From Cliona cf. orientalis (lineage: Eukaryota; Porifera; Demospongiae; Clionaida; Clionaidae): a stretch of DNA of 64,000 nucleotides. Where the stretch lies: the NCBI GenBank assembly GCA_963930775.1, contig OZ005700.1, positions 6,210,609 to 6,274,608 on the forward strand, in the 5' to 3' direction. Each line of letters begins with the position of its first letter. The first letter of the stretch is position 1. Below, piece by piece: positions 1,725 through 22,964 of the stretch. Under the pieces are notes generated by a model, which did not search any database, had not been told where the DNA came from, and was given only the letters and a program-made list of their open reading frames with translations. The position numbers and the translations under genes were made by a program.

Positions 1725-4700
1725 GATTATTATCATGATCATCTTCTTCGAAATGAAATTGGGAAAGTGATTTCCGTTCACTTAGATGACAGCGAAGCAA
1801 GTGCTATAGTGAAAGTAAAAGTCAAAGCAGCCACAGGTAAGGAGTATGAGACATACAGTGTATTTCCTAAAACCTAGTAAATTAAGCCATAAATGTAGAG
1901 GGGAGAAGTTTGGAAGAAATTTCGGAATCCAGCCTGGATGCATTGTAAACTGTCTTAAAATTATACAATGCAGCTGCAAATTTACTTGAGGAAGTGCAGG
2001 GTAACCTGAAACAAAGGGACAGGTCTGAGAAAGTTCATTTCTTGGTGAGTAGTAATATTTTTTCCTCCCCAGTATGTTTTTATTTTACTAAGTTTCCATT
2101 GTATTACTAGTATTCTGAGTCATCCACTACCACCCTGAATTGGAATGCATTGATGAAACCTCTTGCCACAGGCATGATAGCTTATGCAAGGAAACATTAT
2201 CCTATGGTGGAAGTTAAACATGTGGAAGGTATTCAGGTTACCATTTCTGGAGTGGCTCATGATGTAATAGCTCTGCAGAAACAATACAACCATCATGTAG
2301 CAAGAAATACACAATCACTTGTGCCCCCACCAGTATCAGAGTCTGCCTTAGATCCTCCAGCTATGTGTGTGGACAGCACAGTTTTGGATCCTCCGACTGT
2401 AGACAACACAGCATCTGAAGCTAACAGCACCATCAAAGAATATCCTAATCTCAATCCTGATGTTCTTGCTTTGCTTCAAAAACTTCCTGAGGGCAAAATC
2501 CCTGGTCTTCGCTATGATATAAAACGTGGCAGTGTCATTATGGATGATAGCTGTTCTTCAGAAGAGGAGATCTTATGTATTTCTACATTCCAAGCAAAGT
2601 ATCAAGAAATAGTTGCTGGCTCATCTCGCAAATTAAGGGTTGATGCTCTTGAAATTCCTGAAAAACTAAGCGACCAAGCTGTGAAAGGGATAATATCTTC
2701 ATATGATGCAAAGTACAACCAGTGTGTTTTCATTATGCAAGAAGATCCTAGAGCAGTCAGAGTGATTTCCAATTCTTCTCGACAATTTGAACAGGCCAAA
2801 AAGATTCTAAAGGACGGCCTCAATCAAGGTTTAGTCAGTGAAGGTCTAATTAGTGCTACCTCATTGACTTCAAGTGAAAACATGGTCATTCCACTTCCTG
2901 GTGGGCGTAAACTAACACTCAAGCAAGCAGATATAGTCATGGAAGAGGTTGATATCATAGTGAATGCAGCCAATAAGAATCTTGATCATGGAGCTGGGGT
3001 TGCTGGAGCTATAAATAGAGCAAGCAATGGAGCTGTGCAGAAATACTCCGAGAAGTACATCAAGAAACATGGGCAGTTATTTCCAGGTCAAGTTGCAGTT
3101 ACACAAGCTGGAGGCTTGCTAAAATGTAAACGTATCATACATGCCGTTGGCCCTACAAATTATGAATATAATGTCACTGTATGTGAGCGATTGCTTCATG
3201 ATGTGATGAATAAAGTATTGAAAGAAGCAGAAAAATTTAGTGCTCAGTCCATTGCAGTGCCAGCTATAAGCAGTGGGATATTTGGAGTCGGAAAGGAACT
3301 AGTTGCCAAAAGTATTACAGACAGCATTCAGTCTTACAGATTTTCCAAACCTCCACCTACACTCTCCGACATTCGGATTGTCATCATTGATCATCCAACA
3401 CATAGTGTATTTGCGCAGCTATTTGCCACAAGGATGGCTGTCTTGGTACATTCCAATCCAGATCCCCACAAGAGTGCGACTCACCCATTGTCTTCATCAT
3501 CAGACAAAGTTATTGTGTCGTCAAGTCCAACTCCTTTAAGAAATGCAACTGATATGATGTCATTGCCTAAGGAAACCTCTAAAGGTGTTCCAGCAGATGC
3601 ATGTTCTAGTGAATTCACCACAAAAGGTATAATACTGACACTGTATCTATACCTATCTGCAAGATCCTGACAAAGCCTGTGTCTACATAATATTATGTGC
3701 ATTTTGCTTATTCACTAAATGCCGTTATGCTTCACTAAGCACAGCCTGGTATGCACAAGGGCATAAATGCTTTTCTAAGCATACATAGACATGTGGTCAA
3801 AGATGATATTGGATTTGCAGACTCTTTAATCAGTGTATGTGCAAGCTAATTGGCTCCTCTCCTTTGCAGTTCTCGAATGCAGCTACCTATTAATATAGGC
3901 TTTCTTTCTACAAGATACAAGTGCATGCATTTGCTTAGTAGTACCTTATAATAGCTAGTTGTAGCATGCATTTTGGGCACAGCAATATATAGTATCCCAA
4001 ATAGTAGCCAGTACTTGAAATACCTTATGGCGGATAGTTTTGGGGGTGCTAATTTTCATGGAAAGTCAGAGAAAGCCCTCAGAATTAATTATTGTGTTTT
4101 TAACAGCAACCCAGTTCATGCAGGAACATAGCATTGATGATGTAATCTATACACTCTCGATCTCACTCAATTTTCTTTGTCACTAAATCACTTCCGCAAA
4201 GAAACCTGGACAAATAGCATGAAATAGAAGCTAATAACGTGTAGCTGGTAATTTTCAGGTTAATTTGGCATGCAGTCTTGAAAATTAATGCCTACAGTAG
4301 ATACATGAGTGGACTGTTCAGTGTTAGCTCGATGCTGTGATCCAGCTCCAGATGGTGTATTATTTGTACTGAAGCAGGTAGTAAAGATTGCGCGCAAAGC
4401 ACGCTCGATTTTTTAGCCACGCCCCCTTAGGGGTCAAACCACGCGCCCATTTTCGGGTGTCTACCGCAATCATAGCAACGTGGAAAGTCTTCTTGAGTCT
4501 AGAACGCCGTTTTGTCACGATCACATGACATTACTTACATCATCTCAGAGAGAGATATCTGTCTAGCTTAGAGATCGGAGCTGTACCTTCTGCCATTATA
4601 AAAGTTCGAGTGCTTAGTCAGCAAACAAACTTATCATGGCATGCACACAGCACGGTGAGTGTTGTTGTGTATTTAAGTATATAGCTGGCTGAACTGATAA

Positions 4701-22964: not shown

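What the first reader, a model, noticed from the sequence alone, without database searches (positions are those of the whole stretch)
1725..22964. One reading frame joins a macrodomain, Death-fold domains and a DTX3L-type RING-DTC ligase
Seen: 16 exons in unbroken phase give macro - Death x3 - RING - DTC in 1229 codons. Known: in vertebrates DTX3L (RING-DTC) and PARP9 (macrodomains) are separate, neighbouring, interacting proteins. Inference: the sponge gene is a 'Rosetta stone' single-chain version that reads ADP-ribose, ubiquitinates, and can join Death-domain assemblies. I know of no described protein with this set.
Basis: partly seen in the sequence, partly recalled or inferred. Interest (0 to 1): 0.9.

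Follow-up and report, generated by a model that had tools for sequence, protein, structure and literature searches.

The report
Macrodomain-Deltex ubiquitin ligase with Death domains
In this animal genome (most likely a sponge) one gene model combines an ADP-ribose-binding macrodomain with a Deltex-type ubiquitin ligase, as many invertebrate proteins already do, but it also seems to have gained three Death domains between them, which might tie the ligase to immune or cell-death signalling.

Summary
The reading frame is real. Splice sites give 16 exons and 1229 codons (KH-like x3, macro, Death x3, RING, DTC), open at the 5' end: exon 1 starts at an acceptor and has no Met. Macro plus RING-DTC in one chain is not new: 40 of 109 homologues have it, among them Amphimedon, Branchiostoma, molluscs, Lingula and echinoderms, and the window protein groups with Amphimedon. 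What sets it apart is the Death triplet: 0 of 109 homologues show it, and two word-limited database searches with it found nothing. It lies on six exons, all phase 1-1, so joining through it and skipping it both keep the frame; phase proves little. Against two genes: the rival start at 4636 lies in a dispersed repeat, three close relatives seem to share the phase-1 donor ending the macro exon, and relatives run macro-linker-RING in one chain. The catalytic DTC glutamate (DTX2 E608, DTX3L E733) is Asp here; 84 of 86 aligned residues are Glu. Best reading: a lineage-specific Death-domain gain in an old ADP-ribose/ubiquitin ligase family. No transcript evidence was available.

The parts
1725..2044 (+). 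exons 1-2 (1725-1836, 1974-2044), residues 1-61; 5' end of the gene model still open
   Evidence: AG acceptor before 1725, no Met in frame, no upstream exon found
2111..3626 (+). exon 3, residues 62-566: three KH-like units and the macrodomain (macro about 2960-3310)
4380..4660 (+). dispersed repeat that contains the rival start ATG 4636-4638 and its donor
   Evidence: 41 further rows (39 places) elsewhere in the genome at 75-90% identity, 35 of them covering the ATG exon; 40 of 112 candidates scored, so a lower bound
7284..7352 (+). exon 4, Ser/Thr-rich linker, phase 1-1
7407..7691 (+). exon 5, Death copy 1, phase 1-1
   Evidence: Pfam Death E 0.01 alone; 20.3 bits against own-genome Death profile, no shuffle as high
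7802..8149 (+). exons 6-7 (7802-7939, 8006-8149), Death copy 2, phase 1-1
   Evidence: Pfam Death E 1.2e-7 in the whole protein, residues 704-766
10210..10575 (+). exons 8-9 (10210-10266, 10324-10575), Death copy 3, phase 1-1
   Evidence: Pfam Death E 0.089 alone; 46.5 bits against own-genome profile; helical model, fold match to Death inconclusive
13409..13995 (+). exons 10-12 (13409-13580, 13640-13884, 13936-13995), linker with I-x-Y-P-x-L-P motif
   Evidence: motif also in 4 of 109 homologues, P0005 and P0014-P0016, between macrodomain and RING
14055..14236 (+). exon 13, RING finger (eight Cys/His ligands read by eye) and start of DTC
   Evidence: Pfam zf-RING_2 E 3.6e-9
14305..14645 (+). 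exons 14-15 (14305-14475, 14524-14645), DTC domain
   Evidence: Pfam DTC E 9.9e-58; DTX3L 3pg6 E 5e-46
22871..22964 (+). exon 16, end of DTC and stop codon; carries the Asp at the catalytic Glu position
   Evidence: DTC match continues over the 8.2-kb intron; residue count

Best explanation
It is a sponge-type member of an old animal family of single-chain KH-macro-RING-DTC ubiquitin ligases that has gained, in its own lineage, a cassette of six phase 1-1 exons encoding three Death domains between macrodomain and linker. Likely working, mostly inferred: the macrodomain (macrodomain-1 type) binds or removes ADP-ribose; the RING brings E2-ubiquitin; the DTC pocket presents ADP-ribose, NAD or single-stranded nucleic acid for ubiquitin; the Death triplet places the ligase in Death-domain assemblies, a domain that is abundant in this genome. 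Shown here: gene model, domains, relatives, repeat content. Inferred: that the full transcript exists, and every step of function.
For: Open frame over 16 exons. Macro N-terminal to RING-DTC in one chain in 40 of 109 homologues; unnamed database ORFs P0009 and P0014-P0016 run from macro through linker into RING and the start of DTC. Window protein with both Amphimedon proteins in the RING-DTC tree (94/78), inside a branch with Branchiostoma (97/91). Linker motif I-x-Y-P-x-L-P shared with 4 of 109, all of the sponge-like kind. The three nearest relatives (52-57% over exon 3) have Thr/Ser/Asn-Lys-Gly near the ORF end where the window has TTKG|gt, so the phase-1 donor looks conserved and the macro exon not terminal. 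Rival start lies in a repeat. Death is expanded in this genome: 150 of 150 scored, out of 1292 candidates, pass the cut-off.
Against: No transcript was available. The joins 3626/7284 and 10575/13409 span 3.7 and 2.8 kb of repeat-rich intron, and phase fits by chance in one of three. A Death-skipping join is also open. No relative with the Death triplet was found, so the insertion has no comparative confirmation. The DNA of the three nearest relatives was not seen, so the shared donor is read from protein only. The linker motif is missing in the second Amphimedon protein, P0008. Asp at the catalytic position may mean weak ADP-ribose ubiquitylation. The repeat could still act as a promoter. No AATAAA follows the DTC stop up to 24000, only ATTAAA at 23505.
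Confidence: 0.68

Rival explanations
1. The Death exons are an optional cassette or belong to a separate transcript; the main product joins 3626 directly to 13409 and is an ordinary KH-macro-RING-DTC protein.
For: Exons 4-9 are all phase 1-1 and the 914-codon skip frame is open; none of the 40 macro-RING-DTC relatives shows a Death domain.
Against: The six exons all have AG/GT borders in one phase; no separate start or poly-A signal clearly belongs to the cassette (AATAAA counts near chance).
Confidence: 0.17
2. Two adjacent genes: KH-macro ending at 3668-3670, and Death-RING-DTC starting at ATG 4636 and splicing to 7284.
For: ATG 4636 has a TATA-like sequence before it and a donor GTGAGT, and the frame joins to 7284.
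Against: The start region is a dispersed repeat; homologues have macro and RING-DTC in one chain; the macro-exon donor looks conserved; no AATAAA or ATTAAA in 3627-4380, though only 0.56 AATAAA are expected by chance there and the DTC end has none nearby either; a word-limited search of proteins of about 370-1170 aa found no relative of the Death part.
Confidence: 0.12
3. The gene is a decaying or non-functional copy.
For: Catalytic Glu changed to Asp; repeat-rich introns.
Against: No stop or frameshift in 1229 codons; RING ligands (by eye), DTC His and Tyr, and the macrodomain NAAN are kept; of the two DTC loci found in the genome the other looks WWE-type (by eye), so no intact twin is seen.
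Confidence: 0.03

Closest known systems
Single-chain KH-macro-RING-DTC proteins of invertebrates (for example Amphimedon LOC109585277 = P0005 and LOC100631422 = P0008)
   Same: Order macro, linker, RING, DTC; nearest in the RING-DTC tree; linker motif in P0005, not in P0008
   Different: No Death domain detected; Glu at the catalytic DTC position
Vertebrate DTX3L
   Same: RING-DTC, nearest solved structure 3pg6; KH-like units before the RING (PMC11460948, passages)
   Different: The precomputed Pfam lists of the DTX3L-named rows show no macrodomain and no Death domain
PARP14 and PARP9 macrodomain 1
   Same: Nearest macrodomains by sequence and, tied with others, by fold; the residue matching PARP14 G832 (constant offset, inferred) is Gly
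   Different: PARP14 and PARP9 carry further macrodomains and a PARP-type domain (PMC13224862, passages); Pfam finds neither here. The residue before the matching Gly is Ala here, Gly in PARP14 and PARP9
Death-domain proteins of sponges (for example NLRD receptors, PMC12909245, passages)
   Same: Death domains, numerous in sponge genomes
   Different: No NACHT or LRR match here; Death sits in the middle of a ligase

Membership tests
Deltex RING-DTC family | DTC domain | tested here: met
   Pfam PF18102, 194.5 bits, cut-off 25
Deltex RING-DTC family | RING directly before DTC | tested here: met
   RING 1040-1083, DTC 1089-1219
Deltex, competent for ADP-ribose ubiquitylation | Catalytic His (DTX2 H582, DTX3L H707) | tested here: met
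   His; 90 of 94 rows have His
Deltex, competent for ADP-ribose ubiquitylation | Catalytic Glu (DTX2 E608, DTX3L E733), reported as strictly conserved (PMC7615817, passages) | tested here: not met
   Asp here; of 94 rows 84 have Glu, 1 Asp (this one), 1 Gln (P0044), 8 a gap. Competence is therefore not claimed
Single-chain macro-RING-DTC group | Macrodomain N-terminal to RING-DTC in one chain | tested here: met
   In the gene model; transcript not available
Single-chain macro-RING-DTC group | Groups with members in a RING-DTC tree | tested here: met
   With both Amphimedon proteins, support 94/78, just short of the tree tool's star
PARP9 | Two macrodomains and a PARP-like domain | tested here: not met
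   One Macro stretch, no PARP match listed at E up to 1
Death domain | Sequence match to PF00531 | tested here: met
   Over cut-off once in the whole protein; copies 1 and 3 below it, supported by own-genome profile
Death domain | Six-helix Death fold | tested here: inconclusive
KH-like domain | beta-alpha-beta-beta-alpha unit | tested here: inconclusive
   Three such units in the model; no KH match in Pfam at E up to 1; not searched alone

The most novel reading that the evidence does not exclude
A Death-domain-scaffolded ADP-ribose/ubiquitin ligase: the Death triplet draws the enzyme into sponge Death-domain (for example NLRD) assemblies, where it reads or erases ADP-ribose placed by PARP14-like enzymes and attaches ubiquitin, a direct link between inflammasome-like complexes and ADP-ribose-ubiquitin marking that I found described for no animal.
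Probability: 0.25. Interest if true: 0.75.

Novelty: new variant of a known kind. Interest (0 to 1): 0.45.

Why it matters
Macro and Deltex modules that work as partner proteins in vertebrates occur in one chain in Amphimedon, lophotrochozoans, echinoderms, an acorn worm and amphioxus, so the split in vertebrates may be derived; the coupling of ADP-ribose recognition and ubiquitin transfer becomes testable in one polypeptide. The Death triplet, if transcribed, would physically join that enzyme to Death-domain signalling, and the Glu-to-Asp change offers a natural test of the proposed DTC catalytic mechanism.

Tried and rejected
Upstream exon: tblastn of the N-termini of five homologues over 20 kb upstream plus window 1-1800, and a phase-0 donor scan over about the last 10.8 kb of it, gave nothing convincing. 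Death-region searches: nothing at E 1e-3 among 5963 candidates (proteins of 0.55-1.75 times 1228 aa) and the 7997 candidates sharing most words (0.55-1.75 times 668 aa; capped); relatives without shared 5-residue words would be missed. Death profile over 109 homologues: best E 0.24. PDB search with the three-copy profile: first rows are repetitive designed proteins by many weak hits, then THO complex subunit 1 at E 3.6e-4 (its Death-like domain is recalled), PIDD 0.13, CRADD 0.16. Fold match of Death copy 3: inconclusive. Fold rows shown for exon 3 cover the macrodomain only. Poly-A signals: counts near chance, uninformative. Literature: searches returned no paper that, by listing or the passages I read, describes a macro-RING-DTC single chain in an invertebrate or a Death-Deltex protein; most listed papers were not opened, and subscription papers are mostly not held.

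Notes on counts: counted by eye, the Pfam lists give Macro plus DTC in 41 of 109; phmmer gives 42 of 109 with both, from which P0021 and P0040 were dropped because their RING is an N-terminal TRIM- or TRAF-like one by eye. One of the 40 is a vole PARP14-like entry (P0103) that may be a faulty gene model; P0009 and P0014-P0016 are truncated inside DTC. itself scored only the 7992 candidates sharing most words. In one search rows with a RING-DTC score of 100 bits or less were left out (93 homologues plus the window kept, of 99 homologues with a hit). One search used 29 of the homologues. The Death profile used 8 of 15 non-window loci: five minus-strand ones fell out by my script's filter and two were not tried; one search used these 8 plus the three window copies. 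The motif I-x-Y-P alone occurs in 13 of 109, some far from the linker.

Full report

The Death triplet. Copy 2 carries the Pfam match. All copies are below the cut-off when cut out alone, but they resemble one another (0 of 1000 shuffles as good in each pair) and score 20.3, 66.0 and 46.5 bits against a profile of 8 other Death copies of this genome; these came from a search with the window copies, a partial circularity. Exons 4-9 all begin and end in phase 1, the pattern expected of an inserted exon cassette (general knowledge of exon shuffling), and the flanking borders are phase 1 too.

One gene or two. Phase is weak evidence, since a random join fits in one of three and the skip join 3626-13409 also stays open (914 codons). 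Stronger: (a) 40 of 109 homologues carry the macrodomain N-terminal to RING-DTC in one chain. (b) In the three nearest relatives the ORF ends with TKG, SKG or NKG starting 39, 4 and 23 residues from its end, where the window has TTKG|gt; such tripeptides occur otherwise 0, 1 and 1 times in these tails. I take this as a shared phase-1 donor; the DNA of the relatives was not available. (c) The ATG at 4636 that could start a second gene lies in a repeat with 41 further rows elsewhere, 35 covering the ATG exon. (d) The linker motif I-x-Y-P-x-L-P in exon 10 recurs in P0005 and P0014-P0016 (4 of 109), there between macrodomain and RING; P0009 and P0042 have it with one change, P0098 only I-x-Y-P, P0008 not at all. 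Intron 9 is also rich in dispersed repeats. I put one gene with at least one Death-bearing product at 0.68.

Novelty. A recent review notes that PARP9 plus DTX3L together resemble PARP14 and that PARP14 has sponge paralogues (PMC13224862, passages); the passages read do not mention a fused form. In a RING-DTC tree of 30 rows the window protein sits with Amphimedon (94/78); 14 of 27 inner branches are open, and the seven vertebrate rows without macrodomain form one side of a branch only weakly (69/85), so loss of the macrodomain in vertebrates is possible but not shown.

Catalysis. [quoted passage not shown] the DTX3L equivalents are H707, Y719 and E733 (PMC11460948, passages). I placed these residues in 3pg6 by their spacing. 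In the alignment of 94 rows the window protein has His and Tyr at the first two and Asp at the third, where 84 rows have Glu, one Gln (P0044) and eight a gap. Whether Asp supports the reaction is unknown.

Mechanism, with its status. ADP-ribose reading or erasing by the macrodomain: inferred from type; the residue matching PARP14 G832 (whose change to Glu diminished activity, PMC10499325, passages) is Gly, the residue before it is Ala instead of Gly. Ubiquitin transfer: inferred from RING-DTC. Docking into Death assemblies: inferred from the domain and from the Death expansion (Dysidea avara and other sponges, PMC12909245, passages). A PARP14-like gene about 176 kb away on the same contig (its KH match is just under the Pfam cut-off) could be the writer; the linkage echoes the vertebrate PARP14-PARP9-DTX3L cluster but is one observation made after the fact.

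Noticed in passing
G000:C12:6020009-6036674 (loci L029, L030): PARP14-like gene on the minus strand (macrodomains, WWE, PARP14-type KH just under its cut-off, PARP pieces) about 176 kb from the window gene; recalls the vertebrate PARP14-PARP9-DTX3L cluster.
   Followed up: partly
window 16181-19315 (+): Long single-exon reading frame nested in intron 15, same strand, interrupted by one in-frame TGA at 16715-16717; only weak, sub-threshold Pfam matches, many hydrophobic stretches by eye.
   Followed up: partly
G000:C10:8880300-8880935 (L008): Only other DTC locus found in the genome; nearby frames look like a WWE-type Deltex (DTX1/2/4 kind), judged by eye.
   Followed up: partly
proteins P0021 and P0040: The same KH-macro module follows a TRIM-like or a TRAF-like N-terminus, by eye and precomputed Pfam: macrodomain joined to other RING types.
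   Followed up: no
protein P0105: An entry named deltex carries a PARP domain and a DTC domain in one chain (precomputed Pfam).
   Followed up: no
window 6500-6799 and 9011-9310: Two copies of a 300-base repeat, 90% alike, in introns 3 and 7.
   Followed up: no
whole genome G000: Death domain strongly expanded: 1292 first-look candidates, 150 scored and all over the Pfam cut-off.
   Followed up: no
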